Assembly: GCF_037975245.1 (NCBI RefSeq)
Contig: NC_092579.1
Coordinates: 253,001-317,000, forward strand
Source of the DNA: Apostichopus japonicus
Taxonomy: Eukaryota > Echinodermata > Holothuroidea > Aspidochirotida > Stichopodidae
DNA: 64,000 bases
Reading direction: 5' to 3'
Numbering within the stretch: position 1 is the stretch's first letter; each line of letters begins with the position of its first letter. A model generated the notes under the pieces. It did not search any database. It was given only the letters and a program-made list of their open reading frames with translations, and had not been told where the DNA came from. Of this stretch, positions 3,345 to 56,719 are shown in pieces. The translations under genes were made by a program, and so were the position numbers.

Positions 3345-3382
3345 ATTAGTACCATAATCTGATATGAAAAATAATGTATAAA

Positions 3383-9771: not shown

Positions 9772-10387
9772 CTTTCAATAATCTCTAGACTGCATATTTA
9801 ATGAACATGCAAATATTGCTGGATCTGCTTTGACCATTCCAGTCAGTGCTGTTCCCTGACATTACTTCTGTTTTCAGAAAGGACAATTTTCACTTTATCA
9901 TCAAGGCCACAATAGCAAGCTCACTGTAGGCCCTGTAGAGTGCATTATTCTCAATATGAATGTTGCTGCAATGGTATCAAGTAGTTGCTATACAATGATG
10001 TAATATAATGAGTAAAGGAAGTTGTTACTTGTAGTCTTGTTACATATATTCAAGGGCAATCAGCTAGATTGGGACAGACTTTCTGCTGTAGTTTATAACG
10101 ACAGTTAAAAGTTGTTGTGTTAGATTTTTCTGGATATTTGCACTGGTGAGAAACCATTGGACTATAATTTTAATCTCTACACCATAATTTGTCAAAAGTT
10201 GTTACTTTGTAGCACTGTCACACAATGGATACTTAATTCTTATATTCTTACACAAATATATTCAACAATGAAGAGTGTGTGTTTTAATTGTAATTTTTCA
10301 AGATTGTGAATACAATTACATGTGAACACATGGACTAGCCTATTGGCCATTAATTAATTTACTTATTTGCAATTTTATTTTTTACAG
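9772..10387. other. Unique intron or upstream sequence before the USP1 ATG exon
   Basis: AT-rich unique sequence ending in a polypyrimidine-AG acceptor (TTTATTTTTTACAG, ending at 10387) directly before the ATG exon of the USP1 gene. It is probably the end of a 5' UTR intron. No coding potential is seen. Confidence 0.5.
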
Positions 10388-10414
10388 TATGGGTGAGGTT
10401 GTCTGATTATTAAA
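10388..10414 (+). other. 5' UTR part of the USP1 ATG exon
   Basis: It follows a good acceptor and has an in-frame TGA at 10394-10396 upstream of the ATG. Translation therefore starts in this exon at 10415, and an unseen non-coding exon probably lies upstream. Confidence 0.6.
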
Positions 10415-10509
10415 ATGGCTTGTGAAAGTCCCCCAAGGAAGAGAGCCAAATTATCACTGAAGTTTTCAAAGAATCCACCAACAAAACCAATGAGAAAATT
10501 AAAAATCGG
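10415..10509 (+). CDS. USP1: USP1 coding exon 1 (start exon)
   Basis: Encodes residues 1-31 plus two bases of Gly32. It begins MACESPPRKRAKLSLKFSK, which matches the RLSLKF segment near the start of vertebrate USP1, known to direct the enzyme to FANCD2. PRKRAK is a likely nuclear localisation signal. The donor is GG|GTAAGA at 10510. A short antisense open frame over this exon is only a shadow. Confidence 0.85.
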
Positions 10510-13500
10510 GTAAGAAGAAACATTCTTTCTAACAGTTACAGTATGTTTAAATTTATGGGCAGGTTTACTCAAGTCTAGCCTGCTTGGAAAGCATATACTG
10601 TAGATTAAGTTTTGTTGTTTATAGTAGATTGCTAACTTATGAAGGGATGTAAGTGGCAGTGGTCCTTTCTTGTTGTTTATGGTAGATTGCTAACTTATGA
10701 AGGGATGTAAGTGGCAGTGGTCCTTTCTTGTTGTTTATAGTAGATTGCTAACTTATGAAGGGATGTAAGTGGCAGTGGTCCTTCCTTGTTGTTTATGGTA
10801 GATTGCTAACTTATGAAGGGATGTAAGTGGCAGTGGTCCTTTCTTGTTGTTTATAGTAAATTGCTAACTTATGAAGGGATGTAAGTGGCAGTGGTCCTTC
10901 CTTGTTGTTTATGGTAGATTGCTAACTTATGAAGGGATGTAAGTGGCAGTGGTCCTTTCTTGTTGCTTATAGTAGATTGCTAACTTATGAAGGGAAGCAA
11001 GTGGCAGTGGTCCTTTCTTGTTGTTAATAGTAGATTGCTAACTTATGAAGGGATGCAAGTGGCAGTGGTCCTTCCTTGTTGTTTATGGTAGATTGTAACT
11101 TATGAAGGGATGTAAGTGGCAGTGGTCCTTTCTTGTTGTTAATAGTAGATTGCTAACTTATGAAGGGATGTAAGTGGCAGTGGTCCTTTCTTAACATTGC
11201 TTATAGTAGATTGCTAACTTATGAAGGGAAGCAAGTGGCAGTGGTCCTTTCTTGTTGTTAATAGTAGATTGCTAACTTATGAAGGGATGCAAGTGGCAGT
11301 GGTCCTTCCTTGTTGTTTATGGTAGATTGTAACTTATGAAGGGATGTAAGTGGCAGTGGTCCTTTCTTGTTGTTAATAGTAGATTGCTAACTTATGAAGG
11401 GATGTAAGTGGCAGTGGTCCTTTCTTGTTGTTAATAGTAGATTGCTAACTTATGAAGGGATGTAAGTGGCAGTGGTCCTTTCTTGTTGTTTATAGTAGAT
11501 TGCTAACTTATGAAGGGATGTAAGTGGCAGTGGTCCTTCCTTGTTGTTTATAGTAGATTGCTAACTTATGAAGGGATGTAAGTGGCAGTGGTCCTTTCTT
11601 AACATTGTTTATAGTAGATTGCTAACTTATCAAGGGATGTAAGTGGCAGTGGTCCTTTCTTGTTGTTAATAGCAGATTGCTAACTTATGAAGGGATGTAA
11701 GTGGCAGTGGTCCTTTCTTGTTGTTTATAGTAGATTGCTAACTTATGAAGGGATGTAAGTGGCAGTGGTCCTTTCTTGTTGTTAATAGTAGATTGCTAAC
11801 TTATGAAGGGATGTAAGTGGCAGTGGTCCTTTCTTGTTGCTTATAGTAGATTGCTAACTTATGAAGGGATGTAAGTGGCAGTGGTCCTTTCTTAACATTG
11901 TTTATGGTAGATTGCTAACTTATGAAGGGATGTAAGTGGCAGTGGTCCTTTCTTGTTGTTTATAGTAGATTGCTAACTTATGAAGGGATGCAAGTGGCAG
12001 TGGTCCTTCCTTGTTGTTAATAGTAGATTGCTAACTTATGAAGGGATGTAAGTGGCAGTGGTCCTTTCTTAACATTGTTTATAGTAGATTGCTAACTTAT
12101 CAAGGGATGTAAGTGGCAGTGGTCCTTTCTTGTTGTTAATAGCAGATTGCTAACTTATGAAGGGATGTAAGTGGCAGTGGTCCTTTCTTGTTGTTTATAG
12201 TAGATTGCTAACTTATGAAGGGATGTAAGTGGCAGTGGTCCTTTCTTGTTGTTAATACAGTAGTAGATTGCTAACTTATGAAGGGATGTAAGTGGCAGTG
12301 GTCCTTTCTTGTTGCTTATAGTAGATTGCTAACTTATGAAGGGATGTAAGTGGCAGTGGTCCTTTCTTAACATTGTTTATGGTAGATTGCTAACTTATGA
12401 AGGGATGTAAGTGGCAGTGGTCCTTTCTTGTTGTTTATAGTAGATTGCTAACTTATGAAGGGATGTAAGTGGCAGTGGTCCTTTCTTGTTGCTTATAGTA
12501 GATTGCTAACTTATGAAGGGATGTAAGTGGCAGTGGTCCTTTCTTAACATTGTTTATAGTAGATTGCTAACTTATGAAGGGATGTAAGTGGCAGTGGTCC
12601 TTCCTTGTTGTTTATGGTAGATTGCTAACTTATGAAGGGATGTAAGTGGCAGTGGTCCTTTCTTGTTGCTTATAGTAGATTGCTAACTTATGAAGGGAAG
12701 CAAGTGGCAGTGGTCCTTTCTTGTTGTTAATAGTAGATTGCTAACTTATGAAGGGATGCAAGTGGCAGTGGTCCTTCCTTGTTGTTTATGGTAGATTGTA
12801 ACTTATGAAGGGATGTAAGTGGCAGTGGTCCTTTCTTGTTGTTAATAGTAGATTGCTAACTTATGAAGGGATGTAAGTGGCAGTGGTCCTTTCTTAACAT
12901 TGTTTATAGTAGATTGCTAACTTATCAAGGGATGTAAGTGGCAGTGGTCCTTTCTTGTTGTTAATAGTAGATTGCTAACTTATGAAGGGGTGTAAGTGGC
13001 AGTGGTCCTTTCTTGTTGTTTATAGTAGATTGCTAACTTATGAAGGGATGTAAGTGGCAGTGGTCCTTCCTTGTTGTTTATAGTAGATTGCTAACTTATG
13101 AAGGGATGTAAGTGGCAGTGGTCCTTTCTTAACATTGTTTATAGTAGATTGCTAACTTATGAAGGGATGTAAGTGGCAGTGGTCCTTTCTTGTTGTTAAT
13201 AGCAGATTGCTAACTTATGAAGGGATGTAAGTGGCAGTGGTCCTTTCTTGTTGTTTATAGTAGATTGCTAACTTATGAAGGGATGTAAGTGGCAGTGGTC
13301 CTTTCTTGTTGTTAATAGTAGATTGCTAACTTATGAAGGGATGTAAGTGGCAGTGGTCCTTTCTTAACATTGTTTATGGTAGATTGCTAACTTATGAAGG
13401 GATGTAAGTGGCAGTGGTCCTTTCTTGTTGTTTATAGTAGATTGCTAACTTATGAAGGGATGCAAGTGGCAGTGGTCCTTCCTTGTTGTTAATAGTAGAT

Positions 13501-16500
13501 TGCTAACTTATGAAGGGATGTAAGTGGCAGTGGTCCTTTCTTAACATTGTTTATAGTAGATTGCTAACTTATCAAGGGATGTAAGTGGCAGTAGTCCTTT
13601 CTAGTTGTTAATAGCAGATTGCTAACTTATGAAGGGATGTAAGTGGCAGTGGTCCTTTCTTGTTGTTTATAGTAGATTGCTAACTTATGAAGGGATGTAA
13701 GTGGCAGTGGTCCTTTCTTGTTGTTAATACAGTAGTAGATTGCTAACTTATGAAGGGATGTAAGTGGCAGTGGTCCTTTCTTGTTGCTTATAGTAGATTG
13801 CTAACTTATGAAGGGATGTAAGTGGCAGTGGTCCTTTCTTAACATTGTTTATGGTAGATTGCTAACTTATGAAGGGATGTAAGTGGCAGTGGTCCTTTCT
13901 TGTTGTTTATAGTAGATTGCTAACTTATGAAGGGATGTAAGTGGCAGTGGTCCTTTCTTGTTGCTTATAGTAGATTGCTAACTTATGAAGGGATGTAAGT
14001 GGCAGTGGTCCTTTCTTAACATTGTTTATGGTAGATTGCTAACTTATGAAGGGATGTAAGTGGCAGTGGTCCTTTCTTGTTGTTTATACGTAGTAGATTG
14101 CTAACTTATAAAGGGATGTAAGTGGCAGTGGTCCTTTCTTGTTGTTTATGGTAGATTGCTAACTTATGAAGGGATGTAAGTGGCAGTGGTCCTTTCTTGT
14201 TGTCAATAGTAGATTGCTAACTTATGAAGGGATGTAAGTGGCAGTGGTCCTTTCTTGTTGCTTATAGTAGATTGCTAACTTATGAAGGGATGTAAGTGGC
14301 AGTGGTCCTTTCTTAACATTGTTTATGGTAGATTGCTAACTTATGAAGGGATGTAAGTGGCAGTGGTCCTTTCTTGTTGTTTATAGTAGATTGCTAACTT
14401 ATAAAGGGATGTAAGTGGCAGTGGTCCTTTCTTGTTGTTTATGGTAGATTGCTAACTTATGAAGGGATGTAAGTGGCAGTGGTCCTTTCTTGTTGTTTAT
14501 GGTAGATTGCTAACTTATGAAGGGATGTAAGTGGCAGTGGTCCTTTCTTAACATTGTTTATGGTAGATTGCTAACTTATGAAGGGATGTAAGTGGCAGTG
14601 GTCCTTTCTTAACATTGTTTATGGTAGATTGCTAACTTATGAAGGGATGTAAGTGGCAGTGGTCCTTTCTTAACATTGTTTATGGTAGATTGCTAACTTA
14701 TGAAGGGATGTAAGTGGCAGTGGTCCTTTCTTGTTGTTTATGGTAGATTGCTAACTTATGAAGGGATGTAAGTGGTAGTGGTCCTTTCTTGTTGTTTATG
14801 GTAGATTGCTAACTTATGAAGGGATGTAAGTGGCAGTGGTCCTTTCTTAACATTGTTTATGGTAGATTGCTAACTTATGAAGGGATGTAAGTGGCAGTAG
14901 TCCTTTCTTGTTGTTAATAGTAGATTGCTAACTTATGAAGGGATGTAAGTGGCAGTGGTCCTTTCTTAACATTGTTTATGGTAGATTGCTAACTTATGAA
15001 GGGATGTAAGTGGCAGTGGTCCTTCCTTGTTGTTTATAGTAGATTGCTAACTTATGAAGGGATGTAAGTGGCAGTGGTCCTTTCTTGTTGTTTATAGTAG
15101 ATTGCTAAATTATGAAGGGATGTAAGTGGCAGTGGTCCTTTCTTAACATTGTTTATGGTAGATTGCTAACTTATGAAGGGATGTAAGTGGCAGTGGTCCT
15201 TTCTTGTTGTTTATAGTAGATTGCTAACTTATGAAGGGATGTAAGTGGCAGTGGTCCTTTCTTAACATTGTTTATAGTAGATTGCTAACTTATGAAGGGA
15301 TGTAAGTGGCAGTGGTCCTTTCTTGTTGTTAATAGCAGATTGCTAACTTATGAAGGGATGTAAGTGGCAGTGGTCCTTTCTTGTTGTTTATAGTAGATTG
15401 CTAACTTATGAAGGGATGTAAGTGGCAGTGGTCCTTTCTTGTTGTTAATAGTAGATTGCTAACTTATGAAGGGATGTAAGTGGCAGTGGTCCTTTCTTGT
15501 TGCTTATAGTAGATTGCTAACTTATGAAGGGATGTAAGTGGCAGTGGTCCTTTCTTAACATTGTTTATGGTAGATTGCTAACTTATGAAGGGATGTAAGT
15601 GGCAGTGGTCCTTTCTTGTTGTTTATAGTAGATTGCTAACTTATGAAGGGATGCAAGTGGCAGTGGTCCTTCCTTGTTGTTAATAGTAGATTGCTAACTT
15701 ATGAAGGGATGTAAGTGGCAGTGGTCCTTTCTTAACATTGTTTATAGTAGATTGCTAACTTATCAAGGGATGTAAGTGGCAGTGGTCCTTTCTTGTTGTT
15801 AATAGCAGATTGCTAACTTATGAAGGGATGTAAGTGGCAGTGGTCCTTTCTTGTTGTTTATAGTAGATTGCTAACTTATGAAGGGATGTAAGTGGCAGTG
15901 GTCCTTTCTTGTTGTTAATACAGTAGTAGATTGCTAACTTATGAAGGGATGTAAGTGGCAGTGGTCCTTTCTTGTTGCTTATAGTAGATTGCTAACTTAT
16001 GAAGGGATGTAAGTGGCAGTGGTCCTTTCTTAACATTGTTTATGGTAGATTGCTAACTTATGAAGGGATGTAAGTGGCAGTGGTCCTTTCTTGTTGTTTA
16101 TAGTAGATTGCTAACTTATGAAGGGATGTAAGTGGCAGTGGTCCTTTCTTGTTGCTTATAGTAGATTGCTAACTTATGAAGGGATGTAAGTGGCAGTGGT
16201 CCTTTCTTGTTGTTTATAGTAGATTGCTAACTTATGAAGGGATGTAAGTGGCAGTGGTCCTTCCTTGTTGTTTATGGTAGATTGCTAACTTATGAAGGGA
16301 TGTAAGTGGCAGTGGTCCTTTCTTGTTGCTTATAGTAGATTGCTAACTTATGAAGGGAAGCAAGTGGCAGTGGTCCTTTCTTGTTGTTAATAGTAGATTG
16401 CTAACTTATGAAGGGATGCAAGTGGCAGTGGTCCTTCCTTGTTGTTTATGGTAGATTGTAACTTATGAAGGGATGTAAGTGGCAGTGGTCCTTTCTTGTT

Positions 16501-19500
16501 GTTAATAGTAGATTGCTAACTTATGAAGGGATGTAAGTGGCAGTGGTCCTTTCTTAACATTGTTTATAGTAGATTGCTAACTTATCAAGGGATGTACTGT
16601 AAGTGGCAGTGGTCCTTTCTTGTTGTTAATAGTAGATTGCTAACTTATGAAGGGATGTAAGTGGCAGTGGTCCTTTCTTGTTGTTTATAGTAGATTGCTA
16701 ACTTATGAAGGGATGTAAGTGGCAGTGGTCCTTCCTTGTTGTTTATAGTAGATTGCTAACTTATGAAGGGATGTAAGTGGCAGTGGTCCTTTCTTAACAT
16801 TGTTTATGGTAGATTGCTAACTTATGAAGGGATGTAAGTGGCAGTGGTCCTTTCTTAACATTGTTTATAGTAGATTGCTAACTTATGAAGGGATGTAAGT
16901 GGCAGTGGTCCTTTCTTGTTGTTAATAGTAGATTGCTAACTTATGAAGGGATGTAAGTGGCAGTGGTCCTTTCTTAACATTGTCTATGGTAGATTGCCTA
17001 CTTATGAAGGGATGTAAGTGGCAGTGGTCCTTTCTTGTTGTTTATAGTAGATTGCTAACTTATGAAGGGATGCAAGTGGCAGTGGTCCTTCCTTGTTGTT
17101 AATAGTAGATTGCTAACTTATGAAGGGATGTAAGTGGCAGTGGTCCTTTCTTAACATTGTTTATAGTAGATTGCTAACTTATCAAGGGATGTAAGTGGCA
17201 GTAGTCCTTTCTTGTTGTTAATAGCAGATTGCTAACTTATGAAGGGATGTAAGTGGCAGTGGTCCTTTCTTGTTGTTTATAGTAGATTGCTAACTTATGA
17301 AGGGATGTAAGTGGCAGTGGTCCTTTCTTGTTGTTAATACAGTAGTAGATTGCTAACTTATGAAGGGATGTAAGTGGCAGTGGTCCTTTCTTGTTGCTTA
17401 TAGTAGATTGCTAACTTATGAAGGGATGTAAGTGGCAGTGGTCCTTTCTTAACATTGTTTATGGTAGATTGCTAACTTATGAAGGGATGTAAGTGGCAGT
17501 GGTCCTTTCTTAACATTGTTTATAGTAGATTGCTAACTTATGAAGGGATGTAAGTGGCAGTGGTCCTTTCTTGTTGCTTATAGTAGATTGCTAACTTATG
17601 AAGGGATGTAAGTGGCAGTGGTCCTTTCTTAACATTGTTTATGGTAGATTGCTAACTTATGAAGGGATGTAAGTGGCAGTGGTCCTTTCTTGTTGTTTAT
17701 ACGTAGTAGATTGCTAACTTATAAAGGGATGTAAGTGGCAGTGGTCCTTTCTTGTTGTTTATGGTAGATTGCTAACTTATGAAGGGATGTAAGTGGCAGT
17801 GGTCCTTTCTTGTTGTCAATAGTAGATTGCTAACTTATGAAGGGATGTAAGTGGCAGTGGTCCTTTCTTGTTGCTTATAGTAGATTGCTAACTTATGAAG
17901 GGATGTAAGTGGCAGTGGTCCTTTCTTAACATTGTTTATGGTAGATTGCTAACTTATGAAGGGATGTAAGTGGCAGTGGTCCTTTCTTGTTGTTTATAGT
18001 AGATTGCTAACTTATAAAGGGATGTAAGTGGCAGTGGTCCTTTCTTGTTGTTTATGGTAGATTGCTAACTTATGAAGGGATGTAAGTGGCAGTGGTCCTT
18101 TCTTGTTGTTTATGGTAGATTGCTAACTTATGAAGGGATGTAAGTGGCAGTGGTCCTTTCTTAACATTGTTTATGGTAGATTGCTAACTTATGAAGGGAT
18201 GTAAGTGGCAGTGGTCCTTTCTTAACATTGTTTATGGTAGATTGCTAACTTATGAAGGGATGTAAGTGGCAGTGGTCCTTTCTTAACATTGTTTATGGTA
18301 GATTGCTAACTTATGAAGGGATGTAAGTGGCAGTGGTCCTTTCTTGTTGTTTATGGTAGATTGCTAACTTATGAAGGGATGTAAGTGGTAGTGGTCCTTT
18401 CTTGTTGTTTATGGTAGATTGCTAACTTATGAAGGGATGTAAGTGGCAGTGGTCCTTTCTTAACATTGTTTATGGTAGATTGCTAACTTATGAAGGGATG
18501 TAAGTGGCAGTAGTCCTTTCTTGTTGTTAATAGTAGATTGCTAACTTATGAAGGGATGTAAGTGGCAGTGGTCCTTTCTTAACATTGTTTATGGTAGATT
18601 GCTAACTTATGAAGGGATGTAAGTGGCAGTGGTCCTTCCTTGTTGTTTATAGTAGATTGCTAACTTATGAAGGGATGTAAGTGGCAGTGGTCCTTTCTTG
18701 TTGTTTATAGTAGATTGCTAAATTATGAAGGGATGTAAGTGGCAGTGGTCCTTTCTTAACATTGTTTATGGTAGATTGCTAACTTATGAAGGGATGTAAG
18801 TGGCAGTGGTCCTTTCTTGTTGTTTATAGTAGATTGCTAACTTATGAAGGGATGTAAGTGGCAGTGGTCCTTTCTTAACATTGTTTATAGTAGATTGCTA
18901 ACTTATGAAGGGATGTAAGTGGCAGTGGTCCTTTCTTGTTGCTTATAGTAGATTGCTAACTTATGAAGGGAAGCAAGTGGCAGTGGTCCTTTCTTGTTGT
19001 TAATAGTAGATTGCTAACTTATGAAGGGATGCAAGTGGCAGTGGTCCTTCCTTGTTGTTTATGGTAGATTGTAACTTATGAAGGGATGTAAGTGGCAGTG
19101 GTCGTTTCTTGTTGTTAATAGTAGATTGCTAACTTATGAAGGGATGTAAGTGGCAGTGGTCCTTTCTTAACATTGTTTATAGTAGATTGCTAACTTATCA
19201 AGGGATGTAAGTGGCAGTGGTCCTTTCTTGTTGTTAATAGTAGATTGCTAACTTATGAAGGGATGTAAGTGGCAGTGGTCCTTTCTTGTTGTTTATAGTA
19301 GATTGCTAACTTATGAAGGGATGTAAGTGGCAGTGGTCCTTCCTTGTTGTTTATAGTAGATTGCTAACTTATGAAGGGATGTAAGTGGCAGTGGTCCTTT
19401 CTTAACATTGTTTATAGTAGATTTCTAACTTATGAAGGGATGTAAGTGGCAGTGGTCCTTTCTTGTTGTTTATAGTAGATTGCTAACTTATGAAGGGATG

Positions 19501-31500: not shown

Positions 31501-34500
31501 GCTGATGATGGGTATGTAGACCTGCTGATGATAGGTATGTAGACCTGCTGTATGTAGACCTGCTGATGATGGGTATGTAGACCTGCTGATGATGGGTATG
31601 TAGACCTGCTGTATGTAGACCTGCTGATGATGGGTATGTAGACCTGCTGTATGTAGACCTGCTGATGATGGGTATGTAGACCTGCTGATGATGGGTATGT
31701 AGACCTGCTGATGATGGATATGTAGACCTGCTGATGATAGGTACCTGTATGTAGACCTGCTGATGATAGGTATGTAGACCTGCTGTATGTAGACCTGCTG
31801 TATGTAGACCTGCTGATGATGGGTATGTAGACCTGCTGATGATGGGTATGTAGACCTGCTGATGATGGGTACAGTATGTAGACCTGCTGATGATGGGTAT
31901 GTAGACCTGCTGATGATAGGTATGTAGACCTGCTGTATGTAGACCTGCTGATGATGGGTATGTAGACCTGCTGTATGTAGACCTGCTGATAATGGATTAC
32001 ACAATCTGCTGGGATTTGTCTAATTATATGTGAAATGGGTCCATTCCTCACGGAAACATGGTGTGGTGTTTTTTCAATATCGACATAGTCAAGGTCAGAC
32101 AGTGACTCATTAATATGACATAGTGAGTCTTTAAAATTCATACCATTGTAGCAGAAACTTCTCAATGAATGTCACTTCAGCATCACCATGAGTGTCCGTT
32201 GATTTAGGAAGTGGGTGCAAATTTTTTAAGTTACTTGATGTTTTGATTTTATATGGTGGTTCAATGTTTGTATTGTGATGAGAATCTAGTGAATCTATCA
32301 CAAAGTTCTTTTACTTTCCTCTCAGAACTGTCAATCCGATGTTTGAAGGCTACCTCCAGCACGATGCCCAAGAGCTTCTTTGTTCCTTACTTTCATCTCT
32401 AGAGGAAGTTCGCGAAAGGATATCCAAGGATATGAGCTGTGGTAATAAAGATGCCATGAACAACAACATCTGTGAGGTTGTCTGCAGAACTCCAACCACC
32501 TCAAAGACTGAGGGGTCTCTCAAAGGTGGATGTAGCCCTAGCATGAACAAATCACAAAAGAGAGGTGTGGAGAGTCCATCTGCTGCTAGAAAGCATCTCT
32601 CTTATGGCCCTCCTTCTGGAGACTTGGTGGTCAGAAATAGTACAGTTGCAGGAGTGTCAAATGAGAAAGGAGATGGGCAAAGAAGCAAAGAGTTCAGACG
32701 AAAGAGTATGAGAAATAAACAATTGGAATGTGAACACCCCAAAAGAGGAGAAAATACTCACGATAAAAAGGATGTCCTGAAAGATATGAAACTAGAGAAG
32801 AAAAAATCTCTGGGTATCAAGAGACTTTATAAGTTGACCAATCAACCAACTATTTTCAGTAAATTAAATATATTAAAGAAAAAGAAACAACATATTCCAC
32901 CCTCCTCACCTTTGGGAGATATTAACAAGGAGGGTGACTGCATTGGAGATGTAAAGAGTTCAGATGAGATGGAACCTGGGCTGCAGTCTCCTTCTAGGGA
33001 CACTACCATGTCTGGTGCACCAGTTGTTATTTTGCAACACCAGGGCATAAGCCAGAGTCTGTTTCAGGGGTCACTAGTTCTGAGGACAAAGTGTATGGAA
33101 TGTGAGAACTATACAGAAAGATGCGAAGAGTTTCAGGACATTAGTGTACCTGTCCATCGTCTGAAGAAAGAAGAGGAAGATTTAGAATTAAACCAGATTG
33201 AACCACCGACAGAGTCAAATGATTCTTGTGGTAGGAATAAAAGTCATATCACATACTTTAACTGTGTTTGCCGTACTGTTATCTGCTGAATGCTACTGTG
33301 TTTGCACAACTGTTGTTCAGCTGAATGCTGCTGTGTTTGCTCTACTGTTGTTCTGCTGAATGGTACTGTGTTTGCTCAACTGTTGTTCTGCTGAATGCTA
33401 CTGTGTTTGCTCAACTGTTGTTCTCCTGAGTGCTACTGTGTTTGCTCAACTGTTTTTCAGCTGAATGTTACTGTGTTTGCTCAACTGTTGTTCTGCTGAA
33501 TGCTGCTGTGTTTGCTCTACTGTTGTTCTGCTGAATGGTACTGTGTTTGCTCAACTGTTGTTCTGCTGAATGCTACTGTGTTTGCTCAACTGTTGTTCTG
33601 CTACTGTGTTTGCTCTACTGTTGTTCTGCTGAATGGTACTGTGTTTGCTCTACTTTTGTTCTGCTGAATGCTACTGTGTTTGCACAACTGTTGTTCTGCT
33701 GAATGCTACTGTGTTTGCTCAACTATTGTTCAGCTGAATGCTACTGTGTTTGCACAACTGTTGTTCTCCTGAGTGCTACTGTGTTTGCTCAACTGTTTTT
33801 CAGCTGAATGGTAATGTGTTTGCTCAACTGTTTTTCAGCTGAATGTTACTGTGTTTGCTCAACTGTTGTTCTGCTGAATGCTACTGTGTTTGCTCAACTG
33901 TTTTTCAGCTGAATGTTACTGTGTTTGCCGTACTGTTATCTGCTGAATGCTACTGTGTTTGCACAACTGTTGTTCAGCTGAATGCTGCTGTGTTTGCTCA
34001 ACTGTTGTTCTCCTGAGTGCTACTGTGTTTGCTCAACTGTTTTTCAGCTGAATGTTACTGTGTTTGCTCAACTGTTGTTCTGCTGAATGCTGCTGTGTTT
34101 GCTCTACTGTTGTTCTGCTGAATGGTACTGTGTTTGCTCAACTGTTGTTCTGCTGAATGCTACTGTGTTTGCTCAACTGTTGTTCTGCTACTGTGTTTGC
34201 TCTACTGTTGTTCTGCTGAATGGTACTGTGTTTGCTCTACTGTTGTTCTGCTGAATGCTACTGTGTTTGCACAACTGTTGTTCTGCTGAATGCTACTGTG
34301 TTTGCTCAACTATTGTTCAGCTGAATGCTACTGTGTTTGCACAACTGTTGTTCTCCTGAGTGCTACTGTGTTTGCTCAACTGTTTTTCAGCTGAATGGTA
34401 ATGTGTTTGCTCAACTGTTTTTCAGCTGAATGTTACTGTGTTTGCTCAACTGTTGTTCTGCTGAATGCTACTGTGTTTGCTCAACTGTTTTTCAGCTGAA

Positions 34501-37500
34501 TGTTACTGTGTTTGCTCAACTGTTGTTCTGCTGAATGCTACTGTGTTTGCTCAACTGTTGTTCAGCTGAATGCTGCTGTGTTTGCTCTACTGTTGTTCTG
34601 CTGAATGGTACTGTGTTTGCTCAACTGTTGTTCTGCTGAATGCTACTGTGTTTGCTCAACTGTTGTTCTGCTGAATGCTACTGTGTTTGCACAACTGTTG
34701 TTCAGCTGAATGCTGCTGTGTTTGCTCTACTGTTGTTCTGCTGAATGGTACTGTGTTTGCACAACTGTTGTTCAGCTGAATGCTGCTGTGTTTGCTCTAC
34801 TGTTGTTCTGCTGAATGGTACTGTGTTTGCTCAACTGTTTTTCAGCTGAATGTTACTGTGTTTGCTCTACTGTTGTTCTGCTGAATGCTGCTGTGTTTGC
34901 TCTACTGTTATCTGCTGAATGCTACTGTGTTTGCACAACTGTTGTTCAGCTGAATGCTGCTGTGTTTGCTCTACTGTTGTTCTGCTGAATGGTACTGTGT
35001 TTGCTCAACTGTTGTTCTGCTGAATGCTACTGTGTTTGCTCAACTGTTGTTCTGCTACTGTGTTTGCTCTACTGTTGTTCTGCTGAATGGTACTGTGTTT
35101 GCTCTACTGTTGTTCTGCTGAATGCTACTGTGTTTGCACAACTGTTGTTCTGCTGAATGCTACTGTGTTTGCTCAACTATTGTTCAGCTGAATGCTACTG
35201 TGTTTGCTCTACTGTTGTTCTGCTGAATGTTGCTGTGTTTGATCTACTGTTGTTCTGCTGAATGCTACTGTGTTTGCTCTACTGTTGTTGTACTGAATGT
35301 TACTGTGTTTGCTCAACTGTTGTTCAGCTGAATGTTGCTGTGTTTGCTCTACTGTTGTTCTGCTGAATGCTACTGTGTTTGCTCTACTGTTGTTCTGCTG
35401 AATGCTACTGTGTTTGCTCTACTGTTGTTCTGCTGTGTTTGCTCAACTGTTGTTCTGCTGAATGCTACTGTGTTTGCTCTATTGTTGTTCTGCTGTGTTT
35501 GCTCAACTGTTGTTTTGCTGAATGCTACTGTGTTTGCTCTACTGTTGTTGTACTGAATGTTACTGTGTTTTCTCAACTGTTGTTCAGCTGAATGTTGCTG
35601 TGTTTGCTCTACTGTTGTTCTGCTGAATGCTACTGTGTTTGCTCTACTGTTGTTCTGCTGAATGCTACTGTGTTTGCTCTACTGTTGTTGTACTGAATGT
35701 TACTGTGTTTGCTCAACTGTTGTTCAGCTGAATGTTGCTGTGTTTGCTCTACTGTTGTTCTGCTGAATGCTACTGTGTTTGCTCTACTGTTGTTCTGCTG
35801 AATGCTACTGTGTTTGCTCTACTGTTGTTCTGCTGTGTTTGCTCAACTGTTGTTCTGCTGAATGCTACTGTGTTTGCTCTACTGTTGTTCTCCTGAATGC
35901 TACTGTGTTTGCTCAACTGTTGTTCTGCTGAATGTTGCTGTGTTTGCTCAACTGTTGTTTTCGAACAAAGGTTTATGAAATGTGGTTTGAGTGTGAGAGT
36001 GTATTATGTGCACCGCTGTGTACCGCTGTGTACGTACCAACTGGGCATGGTAGGCTGTATACCTACGATCGCAATGTGTACGTAATATATCATAGGCAAT
36101 CACATGTAAGAGTCTATTTGTTGTGGAAATGGGAGTGCTAACTTCAAGTTGCTCGTTTTGCCTATTTGCCGACGTAACTTCATTCACCAAATTGATGCGT
36201 TCGAACAAACGGTGCTTTTGGTGAGTAACTGGTGAATTTGAAAACTTAACTCTCATTCATTAATAACAAATGAAAGGAATGGATGCTGGTAGAGCTGATT
36301 GTCGAGCTTAATATTGGTAAAAGAAGATGTCCATTTGCTCAGACATCTATGTGTCATATTTCACATAGGAAGACTGTTTCTTCTGGATATTGAAACATTT
36401 TGGAATAAACATTCTATACTTATCAGTGAATTAATGCTAAATGCCCACATGGGAGTGCTTCAGATAAGGGCTGGAAATCTCTGATCTTTTCTGGTTCTCA
36501 CTTAATTCTTGGACAAATTTAACTAACTTGCTCTACATTAGTCAGATAGTTATGTGGAATTTTGAGCAAATTATATGGTAAGGAATGACAATGCTTGCTG
36601 GCTCTCTGGTTGATATCATTCCTCAGGTTCACACTGGTAATATACCCCAACTTGTAAGTTCCATGGATTATATGTAACTGTTTTGAAATCATTTGACTGT
36701 TGTGATGTTTTTTTCTTCAGATGTGACTTTATCCCAGGGATCCCTTGATTGGGCCCTCTCAGAGTTTACCCTTGGTGAAAGGCTTACAGACACTAATAAA
36801 TATTTCTGTGACAGCTGTCTCCATCTCACAGAAGCAGAGAGGTTTCTCCTATTTGATGACTTACCAGATGTTATGGTTGTACATTTAAAGCGCTTCAGTG
36901 CCCTATCACACACGTAAGTAGTTTTGTTGCCCTCCCTATGATGAGTAAAATTGCTGTGTCATTCATTTAAAGTTATTCAGTTACTACCACTCAAGTCAAT
37001 AGTTCTATTGCCTCCTTATGATGGTTAGAGTTGCTGAATCATTCATTTAAACTAATGTAGTTACTACCACTCAAGTCAATAGTTCTATTACCATCCTTAT
37101 GATGGGTAGAGTTGCTGAATCATTCATTTAAACTAATGTAGTTACTACCACTCAAGTCAATAGTTCTATTGCCCTCCTTATGATGGGTAGAGTTGCTGAA
37201 TCATTCATTTAAACTAATGTAGTTACTACCACTCAAGTCAGAAGTTCTATTGCCATCCTTATGATGGGTAGAGTTGCTGAATCATTCATTTAAACTAATG
37301 TAGTTACTTCCACTCAAGTCAGAAGTTCTATTGCCATCCTTATGGTCGGTAGAGTTGCTGAATCATTCATTTAAACTAATGTAGTTACTACCACTCAAGT
37401 CAGAAGTTCTATTGCCCTCCTTATGATGGGTAGAGTTGCTGAATCATTCATTTAAACTAATGTAGTTACTTCCACTCAAGTCAGAAGTTCTATTGCCATC

Positions 37501-40500
37501 CTTATGGTCGGTAGAGTTGCTGAATCATTCATTTAAACTAATGTAGTTACTACCACTCAAGTCAGAAGCTCTATTGCCCTCCTCATGATGGGTAGAGTTG
37601 CTGAATCATTCATTTAAACTAATGTAGTTACTTCCACTCAAGTCAGTAGTTTTGTTGCCTCCTTATGATGGGTAGAGTTGCTGAATCATTCATTTAAACT
37701 AATGTAGTTACTTTCGCTCAAGTCAGAAGTTCTATTGCCATCCTTATGATGGGTAGAGTTGCTGAATCATTCATTTAAACTAATGTAGTTACTTCCACTC
37801 AAGTCAGAAGTTCCATTGCCTCCTTATGATGGGTAGAGTTGCTGAATCATTCATTTAAACTACTGTAGTTACTACCACTCAAGTCAGAAGTTCTGCCTCC
37901 TTATGATGGGTAGAGTTGCTGAATCATTCATTTAAACTAATGTAGTTACTACCGCTCAAGTCAGAAGTTCTATTGCCATCCTTATGATGGGTAGAGTTGC
38001 TGAATCATTCATTTAAACTAATGTAGTTACTTCCACTCAAGTCAGAAGTTCTATTGCCATCCTTATGATGGGTAGAGTAAACTAATGTAGTTACTACCAC
38101 TCAAGTCAGAAGTTCTATTGCCATCCTTATGGTGGGTAGAGTTGCTGAATCATTCATTTAAACTAATGTAGTTACTACCACCCAAGTCAGAAGTTCTATT
38201 GCCATCCTTATGGTGGGTAGAGTTGCTGAATCATTCATTTAAACTAATGTAGTTACTACCACTCAAGTCAGAAGTTCTATTGCCATCCTTATGGTGGGTA
38301 GAGTTGCTGAATCATTCATTTAAACTAATGTAGTTACTACCACTCAAGTCAGAAGCTCTTTTGCCCTCCTTATGATGGGTAGAGTTGCTGAATCATTCAT
38401 TTAAACTAATGTAGTTACTACCACTCAAGTCAGTAGTTTTGTTGCCTCCTTATGATGGGTAGAGTTGCTGAATCATTCATTTAAACTAATGTAGTTACTT
38501 TCGCTCAAGTCAGAAGTTCTATTGCCATCCTTATGATGGGTAGAGTTGCTGAATCATTCATTTAAAATAATGTAGTTACTTCCACTCAAGTCAGAAGTTC
38601 CATTGCCTCCTTATGATGGGTAGAGTTGCGGAATCATTCATTTAAACTAATGTAGTTACTACCATTAAGTCATAAGTTCTGCCTCCTTATGATGGGTAGA
38701 GTTGCTGAATCATTCATTTAAACTAATGTAGTTACTACCGCTCAAGTCAGAAGTTCTATTGCCATCCTTATGATGGGCAGAGTTGCTGAATCATTCATTT
38801 AAACTAATGTAGTTACTTCCACTCAAGTCAGAAGTTCTATTGCCATCCTTATGATGGGTAGAGTTGCTGAATCATTCATTTAAACTAATGTAGTTACTTC
38901 CACTCAAGTCAGAAGTTCTATTGCCATCCTTATGATGGGTAGAGTTGCTGAATCATTCATCTAAACTAATGTAGTTACTACCACTCAAGTCAGAAGTTCT
39001 ATTGCCATCCTTATGATGGGCAGAGTTGCTGAATCATTCATTTAAACTAATGTAGTTACTACCACTCAAGTCAGAAGCTCTATTGCCATCCTTATGATGG
39101 GTAGAGTAAACTAATGTAGTTACTACCACTCAAGTCAGTAGTTCTATTGCCATCCTTATGATGGGCAGAGTTGCTGAATCATTCATTTAAACTAATGTAG
39201 TTACTACCACTCAAGTCAATAGTTCTATTACCATCCTTATGATGGGTAGAGTTGCTGAATCATTCATTTGTACTAATGTAGTTACTTTTGCTCAAGTCAG
39301 AAGTTCTATTGCCTCCTTATGATGGGTAGAGTTGCTGAATCATTCATTTAAACTAATGTAGTTACTACCACTCAAGTCAATAGTTCTATCACCATCCTTA
39401 TGATGGGCAGAGTTGCTGAATCATTCATTTAAACTAATGTAGTTACTACCACTCAAGTCAGAAGTTCTGCCTCCTTATGATGGGTAGAGTTGCTGAATCA
39501 TTCATTTAAACTAATGTAGTTACTACCACTCAAGTCAATAGTTCTATTGCCCTCCTTATGATGGGTAGAGTTGCTGAATCATTCAAACTAATGTAGTTAC
39601 TACCACTCAAGTCAGTAGTTTTGTTGCCTCCTTATGATGGGTAGAGTTGCTGAATCATTCATTTAAACTAATGTAGTTACTACCACTCAAGTCAGAAGTT
39701 CTATTGCCATCCTTATGGTGGGTAGAGTTGCTGAATCATTCATTTAAACTAATGTAGTTACTACCACTCAAGTCAGAAGCTCTTTTGCCCTCCTTATGAT
39801 GGGTAGAGTTGCTGAATCATTCATTTAAACTAATGTAGTTACTACCACTCAAGTCAGTAGTTTTGTTGCCTCCTTATGATGGGTAGAGTTGCTGAATCAT
39901 TCATTTAAACTAATGTAGTTACTTTCGCTCAAGTCAGAAGTTCTATTGCCATCCTTATGATGGGTAGAGTTGCTGAATCATTCATTTAAAATAATGTAGT
40001 TACTTCCACTCAAGTCAGAAGTTCCATTGCCTCCTTATGATGGGTAGAGTTGCGGAATCATTCATTTAAACTAATGTAGTTACTACCATTAAGTCATAAG
40101 TTCTGCCTCCTTATGATGGGTAGAGTTGCTGAATCATTCATTTAAACTAATGTAGTTACTACCGCTCAAGTCAGAAGTTCTATTGCCATCCTTATGATGG
40201 GCAGAGTTGCTGAATCATTCATTTAAACTAATGTAGTTACTTCCACTCAAGTCAGAAGTTCTATTGCCATCCTTATGATGGGTAGAGTTGCTGAATCATT
40301 CATTTAAACTAATGTAGTTACTTCCACTCAAGTCAGAAGTTCTATTGCCATCCTTATGATGGGTAGAGTTGCTGAATCATTCATCTAAACTAATGTAGTT
40401 ACTACCACTCAAGTCAGAAGTTCTATTGCCATCCTTATGATGGGCAGAGTTGCTGAATCATTCATTTAAACTAATGTAGTTACTACCACTCAAGTCAGAA

Positions 40501-42133
40501 GCTCTATTGCCATCCTTATGATGGGTAGAGTAAACTAATGTAGTTACTACCACTCAAGTCAGTAGTTCTATTGCCATCCTTATGATGGGCAGAGTTGCTG
40601 AATCATTCATTTAAACTAATGTAGTTACTACCACTCAAGTCAATAGTTCTATTACCATCCTTATGATGGGTAGAGTTGCTGAATCATTCATTTGTACTAA
40701 TGTAGTTACTTTTGCTCAAGTCAGAAGTTCTATTGCCTCCTTATGATGGGTAGAGTTGCTGAATCATTCATTTAAACTAATGTAGTTACTACCACTCAAG
40801 TCAATAGTTCTATCACCATCCTTATGATGGGCAGAGTTGCTGAATCATTCATTTAAACTAATGTAGTTACTACCACTCAAGTCAGAAGTTCTGCCTCCTT
40901 ATGATGGGTAGAGTTGCTGAATCATTCATTTAAACTAATGTAGTTACTACCACTCAAGTCAATAGTTCTATTGCCCTCCTTATGATGGGTAGAGTTGCTG
41001 AATCATTCAAACTAATGTAGTTACTACCACTCAAGTCAGTAGTTTTGTTGCCTCCTTATGATGGGTAGAGTTGCTGAATCATTCATTTAAACTAATGTAG
41101 TTACTTTCGCTCAAGTCAGAAGTTATATTGCCATAATTATGATGGGCAGAGTTGCTGAATCATTCATTTAAACTAATGTAGTTACTACCACTCAAGTCAA
41201 TAGTTCTATTGCCCTCCTTATGATGGGTAGAGTTGCTGAATCATTCAAACTAATGTAGTTACTTCCACTCAAGTCAGAAGCTCTTTTGCCATCCTTATGA
41301 TGGGTAGAGTAAACTAATGTAGTTACTACCACTCAAGTCAGTAGTTCTATTGCCATTATGATGGGTAGTTGCTGAATCATTCATTTACACTAATGTAGTT
41401 ATTACCACTCAAGTCAGTAGTTCTTTTGCCATCCTTATGATAGGCAGAGTTGCTGAATCATTCATTTAAACTACTGTAGTTACTACCACTCAAGTCAGAA
41501 GTTCTATTGCCATCCTTATGATGGGTAGAGTTGCTGAATCTAGGGACATCAGTGTGTTTAAGTCATATAATATTCATCCCTCCTAATATATGGACATCAG
41601 TGCCTTCAAGTCATTACAATACCTGCTTGCCTATCCCAGGAAATTTGAACATCTCACGACATGTAATCAAACTGCAAAAAATTAATTTTCTTCATTTAAT
41701 TTTGTTTTTGATTGACCTTTATTTGTTCAGGTTCTCACCAGGAGGAAGCATACCAAAGTTAAATGATGTTATGGTTACACCTTTAAGCATTAGAATGGAG
41801 AGGTGGTGCACCAAGGCCTGTCAGCAGAGGATGGATACATACCAGTTAATGAGTGTTGTTTCTCACACTGGATCCTCTAGCTCCAGTGGTCATTATCTTT
41901 CCTATGTCCGAGTACCCAAGCTGAAAGCTGTGTGCACACAAGATAGTAAATCCAGGGAGAGTCCACAACCAGTGGATCAATATGAATGGGTGCTGTTCGA
42001 TGATGACCAAGTATCTGCCTTATCAGAGCAAGAATTTGAAAGCTGCATCAACCAACCGTCTGAATCTCAGGAATTATTTGATACCCCATACCTCTTATTT
42101 TACTCTCGTGTGACGACGGAGAAAAATGACTGA
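10415..42133 (+). CDS. USP1: Ubiquitin carboxyl-terminal hydrolase 1 (USP1-like deubiquitinase), complete six-exon gene
   Basis: Coding exons 10415-10509, 26920-27286, 30951-31051, 32326-33230, 36721-36913 and 41731-42133 have GT-AG borders and compatible phases (2, 0, 2, 1, 2). They join to 2064 nt, or 687 residues (human USP1 is 785). The family is a cysteine protease that, with WDR48/UAF1, removes monoubiquitin from FANCD2 and PCNA in the nucleus. Visible features: a basic N-terminus PPRKRAKLSLKF like the vertebrate FANCD2-recognition segment; Cys box NIGNTCYLNS with Cys82; EGYLQHDAQE at 195-204; a lysine-rich insert (about 210-420); zinc-ligand pairs Cys444/447 and Cys519/522; VVHLKRF at 542-548; His box SSGHY with His608; and FDDD with Asp644 as likely catalytic acid. 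The segment between His608 and Asp644 is only 35 residues and has no Gly-Gly, unlike vertebrate USP1. Each intron carries a minisatellite. The gene is convergent with the secreted-protein gene ending at 49977. Confidence 0.93.
10610..25032. repeat. 14.4-kb satellite array, 58/61-bp units, in USP1 intron 1
   Basis: Head-to-tail units combine TTGTTTATAGTAGATTGCTA, ACTTATGAAGGGATGTAAGT and GGCAGTGGTCCTTTCTTG (58 bp). A 61-bp variant has TTAACATTG in place of TTGTTG. Length divided by unit gives about 240 copies; I did not count them individually. Private variants recur at fixed offsets: AGTGGTAGTGG at 14771, 18384, 21463 and 24068, and CTAAATTATG at 15105, 18718, 21797 and 24402. Both sets show steps of 3613, 3079 and 2605 bp, so the array grew by kilobase-scale duplications. 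No open frame of note occurs. The array ends abruptly at CTTTCT|AGGAAGG. Confidence 0.97.
25073..25250. mobile_element. Degenerate relative of the TAGGGATGCAC element
   Basis: Starts TAGGGATGCACATGATTTGG and continues with GGCCAG, CTGGATT and GGCTGGATTTT words resembling decayed CCGGCCGGATTTT motifs of the intact copies nearby. No right end is resolved. G-runs at about 25216-25245 follow. Confidence 0.35.
25428..26243. mobile_element. Non-autonomous hAT-type element, copy B (816 bp, inverted)
   Basis: Ends TCGGGATGCACCGG and CCGGTGCATCCCTA are inverted repeats. The flanks are a perfect 8-bp duplication, GTGTAAAA, at 25420-25427 and 26244-26251, the hallmark of hAT insertions. The orientation is opposite to copies A and C: the palindrome GGATCCAAAAATTTGGATCC lies at its right end. 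The interior matches copy A with internal deletion and has no transposase frame. It inserted into one unit of a 70-bp tandem repeat. Confidence 0.9.
26244..26440. repeat. 70-73-bp tandem repeat, about three copies
   Basis: Units contain CTGCTTTTAAGGCTACAGTG, TAAAACTCCACCAATATACT and CAGGCCTCCTGTAGGGCATT. GTGTAAAA recurs at 26244, 26317 and 26387. A further partial unit lies just left of copy B (about 25402-25427), so the element split this array. Confidence 0.8.
26441..26919. other. 3' end of USP1 intron 1
   Basis: Unique AT-rich sequence ending in the exon 2 acceptor at 26919. Small open frames at 26624-26862 lack homology and splice context. Confidence 0.6.
26920..27286 (+). CDS. USP1: USP1 coding exon 2 (catalytic Cys box)
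   Basis: The acceptor TCTACTTTGTAG is followed by TTCTGTGGATG; its first base completes Gly32. The exon encodes a variable acidic and threonine-rich stretch, then PYVGFYNIGNTCYLNSVLQ, which holds the nucleophile Cys82. It ends in LLKEMHK at an AAG|GTATGC donor, phase 0. The 16.4-kb intron before it contains the 14.4-kb satellite array. Confidence 0.95.
27287..30131. other. USP1 intron 2, mostly unique sequence
   Basis: AT-rich intron sequence with no coding exon. It holds the hAT-type copy C (29043-29507) and, near 29760-29860, a decayed relative (AAGGATGCACCAGAATC followed by CTGGCTGGAT). Confidence 0.6.
29043..29507. mobile_element. Non-autonomous hAT-type element, copy C (465 bp)
   Basis: Ends TAGGGATGCACCGG and CCGGTGCATCCCTA are perfect 14-bp inverted repeats. 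An exact 8-bp target duplication, CTAGTAAC, lies at 29035-29042 and 29508-29515. Near the left end is the perfect palindrome GGATCCAAATTTTTGGATCC; near the right end is ACTATCCGGCCGGATAGT. Most of the interior of copy A is deleted. It lies in USP1 intron 2, in the same orientation as copy A. Confidence 0.93.
30132..30441. repeat. 26-bp minisatellite of tandem hairpins in USP1 intron 2
   Basis: About twelve near-identical units of AAGATTGT plus GAGGTACTACTGTACCTC. The 18-nt part is an inverted repeat, GAGGTAC and GTACCTC around a 4-nt loop, so each unit can fold alone and the arms can also pair between units. The last two units have lost part of the symmetry. Confidence 0.93.
30442..30950. other. 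3' part of USP1 intron 2
   Basis: Unique sequence with a run of 17 C at 30742-30758 and a weak GGCCAGATT/AATCTGGC echo of the hAT-type ends at 30821-30850. It ends at the exon 3 acceptor. Confidence 0.5.
30951..31051 (+). CDS. USP1: USP1 coding exon 3
   Basis: The acceptor TTCATTTTAAG precedes GTCTTTGAG. It encodes VFEFMRDKEDNFILMPSPDT through LVLEALR. Vertebrate USP1 has a comparable helical segment ending LLNTLRELNPMYEGY, so LEALR|TVNPMFEGY joins correctly to exon 4. The donor AAG|GTATGT at 31052 is also the first unit of the 23-bp array that follows. Use of any downstream GTATGT would read into TAG or shift the frame. Confidence 0.9.
31052..31994. repeat. 23-bp minisatellite starting at the exon 3 splice donor
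   Basis: Units are GTATGTAGACCTGCT plus GATGATGG (23 bp), with shortened 15- and 12-bp units interspersed. The first unit begins exactly at the exon 3 donor, so each later unit repeats a GG|GTATGT donor-like sequence. Because 23 is not a multiple of three and the antisense strand has no stop in the unit, long antisense open frames (31021-32004 and 31047-32165) arise. They are artefacts. Confidence 0.95.
31995..32325. other. Remainder of USP1 intron 3
   Basis: Unique AT-rich sequence leading to the polypyrimidine tract and AG of the exon 4 acceptor. No other feature seen. Confidence 0.6.
32326..33230 (+). CDS. USP1: USP1 coding exon 4 (QHDAQE box, lysine-rich insert, first zinc-ligand pair)
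   Basis: The acceptor TTTCCTCTCAG precedes AACTGTCAATCC. The exon encodes TVNPMFEGYLQHDAQELL, then a long low-conservation insert rich in Ser, Lys and Arg. The insert contains TNQPTIFSKL (359-368), resembling KQPSILSKF of vertebrate USP1. The core resumes at LFQGSLVLRTKCMECENYTE, with Cys444 and Cys447, and EEFQDISVPV. The donor TGTG|GTAGGA leaves one base, giving an Asp codon with exon 5. Confidence 0.95.
33259..35961. repeat. 35-bp minisatellite in USP1 intron 4
   Basis: Units are CTGTTGTTCTGCTGAATGCT plus ACTGTGTTTGCTCAA, with variants CTCTA/CACAA and TTTTTCAGCTG for TGTTCTGCTG. At 35 bp per unit the array holds about 77 copies. It starts about 30 bp after the exon 4 donor. Variant blocks recur, for example a shortened GTTCTGCTACTG junction at 33595, 34182 and 35049, showing block duplication. 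The TGTTTTTCAGCTG variants look like splice acceptors. Confidence 0.95.
35962..36720. other. Remainder of USP1 intron 4
   Basis: Unique sequence with no recognised feature apart from the exon 5 acceptor at its end. Small open frames on both strands lack support. Confidence 0.55.
36721..36913 (+). CDS. USP1: USP1 coding exon 5 (second zinc-ligand pair, HLKRF)
   Basis: The acceptor TTTTTTTCTTCAG precedes ATGTGACTTT. It encodes SLDWALSEFTLGERL, then KYFCDSCLHLTEAERFLLF with Cys519 and Cys522, and DVMVVHLKRFSALSH. Vertebrate USP1 has KYFCENCHHYTEAERSLLF at the same place. The donor CAC|GTAAGT is strong. The 81-bp intron array starts immediately at this donor. Confidence 0.95.
36914..41540. repeat. 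81-bp minisatellite filling USP1 intron 5
   Basis: Units include GTTGCTGAATCATTCATTTA, AACTAATGTAGTTACTACCA, CTCAAGTCAGAAGTTCTATT and GCCATCCTTATGATGGGTAG. At 81 bp per unit there are about 57 copies, with short variants. The first unit starts at the exon 5 donor: GTAAGTAGTTTTGTTGCC corresponds to GTCAGTAGTTTTGTTGCC in later units. A 1424-bp superunit is duplicated: AGAAGCTCTT recurs at 38351 and 39775, and ACCATTAAGT at 38661 and 40085. The array ends about 190 bp before exon 6. Confidence 0.95.
41731..42133 (+). CDS. USP1: USP1 coding exon 6 (His and Asp boxes, stop)
   Basis: The acceptor TTATTTGTTCAG precedes GTTCTCACC. It encodes FSPGGSIPKLNDVMVTPL, then VVSHTGSSSSSGHYLSYV with catalytic His608. 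After a short Ser/Gln linker comes YEWVLFDDDQVS with Asp644, then TPYLLFYSRV and a TGA stop. The frame is open from the His box to the stop, so the usual large vertebrate insert is absent here rather than hidden in a missed exon. Confidence 0.95.
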
Positions 42134-42563
42134 ACAAATTTGATTGTTTGGATTTGTTTTAATCCTGCACCAGTGTACAAACTCCCTCATTCAGAGGATA
42201 TCATTAGCTGGTCCCAGTTAATATTCAACAATACATTGGGCTTCCCCTTTTATGCCAAATTACCCCAATTAAGTCTAACACATTGCTTCATTCACTTTGC
42301 AAGCATTTTCAAAGATGCTAAAGGATTGTCAACCTTGTCCAAGGGATTGTGAACAACCTGGTGAAATTTCAAGCTATGTTAGCATTTGATAATAATGCAG
42401 ATGTAACAGTTTCAGCCCAAGCAGCCGCATTAAAATGAGGCTTATGATCAGTGATGAGTTGTAGTTTTATGTTTCACTTGAATACTAAGTATTGCAAATA
42501 TTTATTTCAAGATAAATCAGTGACTTCAAACCATGTCAAATAGCTTGTCTGATTATCTTAATG

Positions 42564-42710
42564 AATAAATTGAAAGTCGCTGCAAATTTTCTAATCTTGA
42601 TAGGCTGTTCTTTTGTGAATAAATGTTCTTTGATTCTTTGCTGAAGGCCAAAGGTATCAATGTGATGGTGTGTGCATATATGAATGGGTGTAAATGTGTG
42701 TGTGTGAGGC
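42564..42710 (+). terminator. Probable USP1 polyadenylation region
   Basis: AATAAA occurs at 42564-42569 and again at 42618-42623, about 430-490 bp after the stop. A T-rich stretch follows, then a strongly GT-rich tract at 42660-42710, resembling a downstream GU-rich element. Which site is used cannot be told from sequence. Confidence 0.55.
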
Positions 42711-42859
42711 CTAAGCATGTAACATAACAGAAAAGGTACATATTGGATGATTTCTTGCACTTTGGGCACAAGAAATTGGTGGAGGTCAAAGGTAATTTGT
42801 GGTCAACAGAGGTCAAAAATTGGAAAGCTTGGAAGAATTTCAAACTTTGTAGACACCAA

Positions 42860-49925: not shown

Positions 49926-49976
49926 AATAAAGCAAAGTCAAAGTAGGTTTGAAGCAAAATGGGGGTATAAACAGGG

Positions 49977-56670: not shown

Positions 56671-56719
56671 GGCATAACCGATGTGATTGCAGCGCACGTA
56701 TGGAACGCCATGTTAACAT

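What the first reader, a model, noticed from the sequence alone, without database searches (positions are those of the whole stretch)
10388..42133. Every intron of a DNA-repair deubiquitinase gene carries its own unrelated satellite array
The reconstructed USP1 gene has five introns within the coding region, each with a different tandem repeat: 58/61 bp (14.4 kb), 26 bp (0.3 kb), 23 bp (0.9 kb), 35 bp (2.7 kb) and 81 bp (4.6 kb). Arrays make up roughly 70% of the gene span while all exons stay intact. Five independent births in one gene suggest a strong genome-wide or locus-specific bias toward intronic tandem amplification. That such a repair gene is the host is notable but may be coincidence.
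Basis: partly seen in the sequence, partly recalled or inferred. Interest (0 to 1): 0.7.

Follow-up and report, generated by a model that had tools for sequence, protein, structure and literature searches.

The report
Intron minisatellites born at splice sites
An animal DNA-repair gene (USP1) is mostly made of different tandem repeats in its introns; one repeat is an amplified copy of the gene's own exon-intron border and another starts exactly at such a border, a kind of repeat described before in lancelets.

Summary
A USP1 gene with a complete reading frame (6 coding exons, 687 aa, five GT-AG introns) can be built, and each intron holds its own array (58, 26, 23, 35, 81 bp units). Repeats cover 74% of the coding span. 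The gene is not special in array number: 6 of 16 strong arrays in the window lie in its introns, 10 in the flanks. What is new is position. Four of the five arrays lie near the splice donor (102, 0, 30 and 6 nt away; the fifth 2,842 nt), unlikely under uniform placement (p = 0.0006 to 0.003, tested after the fact). The intron 5 array derives from the exon 5/intron 5 border: the exon's last 32 nt, which encode a conserved protease stretch, match the first unit in phase (23/32; 0 or 1 of 4,000 control positions as good, by scoring). All 58 copies carry GTC where the true donor has GTA. The intron 3 array starts at intron base 1 and carries 29 donor copies whose computed U1 pairing nearly equals the true one. 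These two resemble the "mirages" of lancelets. No donor-motif enrichment, shared core motif or selection on decoys was found. Species and transcripts are unknown.

The parts
10415..10509 (+). USP1 exon 1 (from ATG); donor cgg|GTAAGA
10612..25032 (+). 58-bp array in intron 1, about 244 copies, 97.5% mean identity to consensus; 226 copies of GTAAGT on the sense strand; starts 102 nt from the donor
26243..26433 (+). second array of intron 1, 70-bp unit, 2.7 copies; a further piece seen by eye at about 25400-25427, on the other side of an inserted hAT-like element
26920..27286 (+). USP1 exon 2, catalytic Cys box GNTCYLNS
30129..30447 (+). 26-bp array in intron 2, 12.3 copies, 2,842 nt from the donor (the exception)
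30951..31051 (+). USP1 exon 3; donor aag|GTATGT
31052..31995 (+). 23/15/12-bp array that begins at base 1 of intron 3; units begin GTATGTAG, i.e. copies of the splice donor
32326..33230 (+). USP1 exon 4
33261..35959 (+). 35-bp array in intron 4, about 77 copies, 30 nt from the donor
36721..36913 (+). USP1 exon 5; its last 32 nt (36882-36913, encoding HLKRFSALSH and part of the next codon) are the inferred source of part of the 81-bp unit
36914..36919 (+). true donor of intron 5, GTAAGT; the only GTAAGT from here to the end of the array (36914-41540)
36920..41540 (+). 81-bp array in intron 5, about 57 copies; unit = about 32 nt exon-derived + about 49 nt intron-derived; donor-equivalent site GTC in 58 of 58 places
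41731..42133 (+). USP1 exon 6 with GHY His box, DDD motif and stop

Best explanation
The window is animal genomic DNA in which minisatellites arise and grow readily. USP1 is an ordinary gene in it with an intact reading frame. Its arrays were probably born separately by short tandem duplications and grew by slippage or unequal exchange, tolerated because they lie inside introns. Births, or survivors, favour the donor end. In intron 5 the founding duplication took about the last 32 nt of exon 5 plus about 49 nt of intron 5; the exon copy stayed functional, a downstream copy acquired a dead donor (GTA to GTC) and that version spread to 58 copies. In intron 3 the founding segment was the first 23 nt of the intron. 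These two are exon-border minisatellites of the type called mirages in lancelets. Shown: reading frame, arrays, positions, exon-unit similarity in phase, GTC in every copy. Inferred: order of events, growth mechanism, neutrality, correct splicing. The arrays of introns 1 and 4 lie near the donor, but no border homology was found there.
For: Gene model. Array 5' offsets 102, 2842, 0, 30, 6 nt; Fisher p = 0.00058, or 0.0034 with 150 nt kept free at the 3' end; no 3' bias, p = 0.90-0.95. Exon 5 tail matches the first unit in phase: anchored score reached by 0 or 1 of 4,000 random control positions for the exon part, 0 or 2 of 4,000 with the donor hexamer, depending on scoring, and 1 of 1,500 in a repeat; the in-phase rotation is the best of 81. 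The first unit is the closest of 58 to the exon, 23/32 against a median of 19/32, as expected of the least homogenised edge copy. The exon is the older side: HLKRF aligns with human HLKCF. GTC in 58 of 58 copies. Array number in the flanks comparable.
Against: Only five introns; the border idea came from looking at them, so the offset test is post hoc, and it leaves out the second (70-bp) array of intron 1, which lies near the far end. Border homology was found at 1 of 5 intronic array edges (intron 5); the intron 3 edge shares only one exon base, and introns 1, 2 and 4 show none. A shuffle test of the exon 5 flank against the array consensus was not significant (263 of 1,000), nor was exon 5 alone without fixing the phase (843 of 2,000): the signal rests on phase and on the first unit. 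Intron 2 breaks the pattern. Part of the 5' bias could be survivorship, since a donor needs few intron bases and the acceptor side needs many.
Confidence: 0.72

Rival explanations
1. Neutral genome-wide minisatellite growth with survivorship: arrays are born anywhere, and those that damage the branch point, pyrimidine tract or exon are lost, which leaves them nearer the donor. The exon 5 match is chance.
For: Flanks are array-rich too; none of the five main arrays ends closer than 190 nt to an acceptor; donor-like content of units is not above shuffles; unphased exon 5 tests not significant.
Against: 5' bias stays at p = 0.0034 after reserving 150 nt at the acceptor end; exon 5 match 0 or 1 of 4,000 in phase with the edge unit closest of 58; intron 3 array starts at base 1 exactly.
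Confidence: 0.2
2. Donor-copy arrays have a function: they bind U1 snRNP to protect long introns from early polyadenylation, or act as decoy donors that lower USP1 output.
For: 226 GTAAGT copies in intron 1, sense strand; 29 of 43 decoys in intron 3 with computed U1 pairing of -8.1 or -8.3 kcal/mol against -8.4 for the true donor.
Against: GTAAGT is not better kept than the rest of the unit (rank 28 of 58 windows); donor scores not above shuffles in any intronic unit (sense strand p = 0.08 to 0.80); intron 5 copies are all GTC and pair weakly.
Confidence: 0.05
3. Locus-specific hot spot tied to USP1 (repair gene, transcription or replication stress).
For: All five introns carry an array; P = 0.002 if births scale with array-free length at the flank rate.
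Against: P = 0.11 if births scale with total length; intronic share 6 of 16 arrays is not in excess; the 12 kb downstream is 60% array.
Confidence: 0.03

Closest known systems
Amphioxus mirages (Adh3, globins BflGb6 and BflGb9, TnC) and the similar repeats of lancelet PGBD5
   Same: Minisatellite-like tandem copies that include an exon-intron border or splice signal, with the true exon kept (passages of PMC3087553; passage of PMC3902484).
   Different: Here about 57 copies and 4.6 kb in intron 5, against 6 and 3 units in the two BflGb6 haplotypes; all copied donors carry one common change that weakens them; other introns of the gene hold non-border arrays; organism unknown.
Intron gain by tandem duplication of AG/GT segments (Rogers idea, as cited in PMC3087553; Cryptococcus CNN00420)
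   Same: Tandem duplication that copies splice signals or whole introns (passages of PMC3087553; PMC2395259).
   Different: No new intron is seen here; copies lengthen an existing intron.
CeRep25B intronic minisatellite of C. elegans
   Same: Minisatellite largely in introns, linked to splicing motifs (passages of PMC4039745).
   Different: One family of 24-base units in many genes; here a different unit in each intron.
USP1 deubiquitinase (human, PDB 7AY1, 9DI1 and others)
   Same: Host gene is a near full-length relative with Cys, His and CxxC motifs.
   Different: Linker regions diverged; introns filled with arrays.

Membership tests
Mirage (exon-border minisatellite) | Minisatellite-like tandem repeat | tested here: met
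   81-bp and 23-bp arrays
Mirage (exon-border minisatellite) | Repeat unit contains an exon-intron border | tested here: met
   Intron 5: exon tail plus donor in phase. Intron 3: border reached, but at most one exon base in the unit. Introns 1, 2, 4: not met
Mirage (exon-border minisatellite) | Copies carry splice signals (many, not all) | tested here: met
   Intron 3 decoys GTATGTAG; intron 5 copies degraded to GTC
Mirage (exon-border minisatellite) | Normal splicing despite the copies | not testable with these tools
   No RNA data; the intact reading frame suggests it
Mirage (exon-border minisatellite) | Length instability between haplotypes | not testable with these tools
   One haplotype only, no genome held
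Mirage (exon-border minisatellite) | Described in cephalochordates | not testable with these tools
   Organism not identified; no genome held
USP1 | Best relative is USP1 along nearly the full length | tested here: met
   E = 1.4e-73; best chain of another USP is USP46 at 2.1e-26 (PDB sequences only)
USP1 | USP catalytic Cys, His boxes and CxxC pairs | tested here: met
   GNTCYLNS, GHYLSY, CMEC, CDSC in the spliced product; Pfam UCH above its cut-off in 2 of 3 exon pieces and just below in the third

The most novel reading that the evidence does not exclude
In this genome splice donors are themselves seeds of tandem amplification: transcription-linked duplication repeatedly starts at exon ends, so that introns grow from the donor side by arrays born from the border, and only copies whose donor is dead or out-competed by the true exon end can spread. 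Intron growth would then be a by-product of splice-site copying, recorded in the unit sequence.
Probability: 0.18. Interest if true: 0.7.

Novelty: new member of a known kind. Interest (0 to 1): 0.42.

Why it matters
Exon-border minisatellites have been proposed as a route to new introns (PMC3087553 passages). Here one gene shows a readable case: an 81-bp unit whose exon part can still be recognised, with a weakened donor in all 58 copies, next to an intron with 29 strong-looking decoy donors. It gives a direct test of how the spliceosome picks the true exon end and of what lets donor copies spread.

Tried and rejected
Donor-like motifs as a common feature of units: rejected, best sense-strand donor score per unit against shuffles p = 0.08 to 0.80 for the intronic arrays. 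Selection on the GTAAGT of intron 1: not seen, rank 28 of 58 six-base windows. A shared core motif among 11 units: not above shuffles in five settings (46 to 60 of 60 shuffles as good). Border homology at other edges: tested at 5 intronic and 6 flanking edges, not at all arrays of the window; positive at intron 5 and at two flanking arrays (43156 and 45470), where it shows that faded units lie beyond the TRF border; negative elsewhere. Similarity of units to the array's 3' flank or to the next exon with its flank: nothing convincing; smallest value 16 of 500 shuffles (intron 1 unit against exon 2 and its flank) among ten such tests. Other genes in the flanks: six-frame Pfam scans of 1-10001, 42134-50235 and 54200-64000 found no family above its curated cut-off; three families came up below cut-off in 42134-50235 (DUF7244, FMP23, TGT_C1). 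Not scanned: 50236-54199, and the gene's interior apart from three exon pieces. RNA families: 0 hits at gathering threshold. Species: not identified. Papers: four were seen in passages only (PMC3087553, PMC2395259, PMC4039745, PMC3902484); everything else as titles and abstract starts in search listings. Titles that may bear on this and that I did not open: PMC2812944, PMC11782384, PMC4974935.
Full report
Observation. The five arrays and their sizes are as described. The gene model closes without any change of sequence: six coding exons (10415-10509, 26920-27286, 30951-31051, 32326-33230, 36721-36913, 41731-42133), 687 codons and a stop, all five introns GT...AG. The product is a USP1 relative over nearly the whole length (E = 1.4e-73 to human USP1 chains; best chain of another USP is USP46 at 2.1e-26, PDB sequences only), with the catalytic Cys and His boxes and both CxxC pairs. 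Introns measure 16410, 3664, 1274, 3490 and 4817 nt and are 90, 11, 74, 77 and 96% repeat.

Is the gene special? In number of arrays, no. With TRF score 200 or more there are 16 merged arrays in the window, 6 in USP1 introns and 10 outside. The ten include a two-copy 487-bp duplication, and two of them are probably one 42-bp array split by a hAT-like element. The intronic share is not in excess (p = 0.16 by array-free length, 0.86 by total length). That all five introns carry an array has P = 0.002 if births scale with array-free length, 0.11 with total length, so this point depends on the model. The 12 kb after the gene is 60% array, the last 9.7 kb 12%. A genome-wide comparison was not possible.

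Are the units unrelated? Mostly. No motif was shared by more of 11 units than in shuffles. Of 66 pairs among 12 units, five reached the floor of 100 shuffles, about 0.7 being expected: three within the downstream 50/48/65-bp group, one between introns 3 and 5 (both hold ATGATGGGTA), one between intron 4 and the downstream 30-bp unit. The last two were not followed up.

Position. The main arrays of introns 1 to 5 begin 102, 2842, 0, 30 and 6 nt after the donor. Under uniform placement within each intron, Fisher's combined p is 0.00058; with 50 or 150 nt kept free at the acceptor end it is 0.0009 and 0.0034; the 3' end shows no bias (p = 0.90 to 0.95). The test was thought of after seeing the borders, n is five, and the second, 70-bp array of intron 1 was left out.

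Intron 5. Upstream of the TRF border the periodic pattern continues into exon 5. The exon's last 32 nt align in phase with the first unit at 23 of 32, a score reached by 0 or 1 of 4,000 random control positions depending on the scoring. The in-phase rotation is the best of 81 and the first unit is the closest of 58. The exon side is conserved with human USP1 (HLKRF against HLKCF), so the exon is taken as the source. Unphased shuffle tests were not significant (843 of 2,000; 263 of 1,000), as the interior units have drifted. At the donor-equivalent place all 58 copies read GTC, the true donor GTA; their computed U1 pairing is -1.4 to -3.1 against -7.3 kcal/mol.

Intron 3. The array starts at intron base 1 and its units (mostly 23, 15 or 12 nt) begin with GTATGTAG. 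Of 43 decoys counted, 24 have tgg and 5 tag before the GT and pair with U1 at -8.1 and -8.3 kcal/mol, against -8.4 for the true aag donor; 14 are weak, at -3.2 to -3.4. By the donor matrix the true site scores higher (8.9 bits against 5.8 for tgg and 7.4 for tag). Reading on from exon 3 meets a stop at the 11th codon. If the gene is made normally, choice of the true donor must rest on exon context or order more than on U1 pairing; this is inference, and U1 sequence and matrix are recalled.

Intron 1. The 58-bp unit carries GTAAGT in 226 copies, with no comparable site on the other strand. It is no better kept than the rest of the unit and such a site is not rare by chance (p = 0.10), so no function is claimed. 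Introns 1, 2 and 4 show no border homology.

Comparison. Lancelet genes carry mirages, minisatellite-like copies of exon-intron borders, in globin, Adh3 and TnC genes, with similar repeats in PGBD5; they are said not to disturb splicing, and length instability is reported for them (passages of PMC3087553; of PMC3902484). Of seven library searches only these two papers, among the rows shown, came up as dealing with such exon-border minisatellites; I judged the rest by title and abstract start, and this is an open-licence library only. A DOI that I recalled for the original Adh3 paper is not held. The intron 5 array meets the definition, the intron 3 array nearly; the other three do not. Whether the organism is a lancelet is unknown.

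Verdict. The better finding is that the donor end of introns looks like the favoured place and that at least one array is built from the exon border itself.

Noticed in passing
25428-26243, 29043-29507, 8068-9363: Three related hAT-like elements (ends TAGGGATGCACCGGAT or near; aligned main pieces about 90-96% alike). The first two have 8-bp target duplications, GTGTAAAA and CTAGTAAC; the third an imperfect one (6 of 8). Two landed inside minisatellites (the 70-bp array of intron 1, the 42-bp array upstream), so those arrays are older than the insertions.
   Followed up: partly
3950-4927: Tandem duplication of a 487-bp segment, 98% alike, upstream of the gene.
   Followed up: no
60306-61283: AT-rich 20-bp repeats arranged as a long imperfect palindrome, 72% over about 1 kb.
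   Followed up: no
45470-49923: The 65-, 50- and 48-bp arrays downstream share a stretch like AAGATGGTAT and may be one lineage.
   Followed up: partly
31052-31995 and 36920-41540: The units of introns 3 and 5 share ten bases, ATGATGGGTA, and their similarity reached the floor of the shuffle test; chance among 66 pairs or a shared feature.
   Followed up: no
10374-10387: A T-rich tract ending in ACAG just before the USP1 start suggests a 5' UTR intron that may contain the 42-bp array at 6546-9768 (by eye).
   Followed up: no
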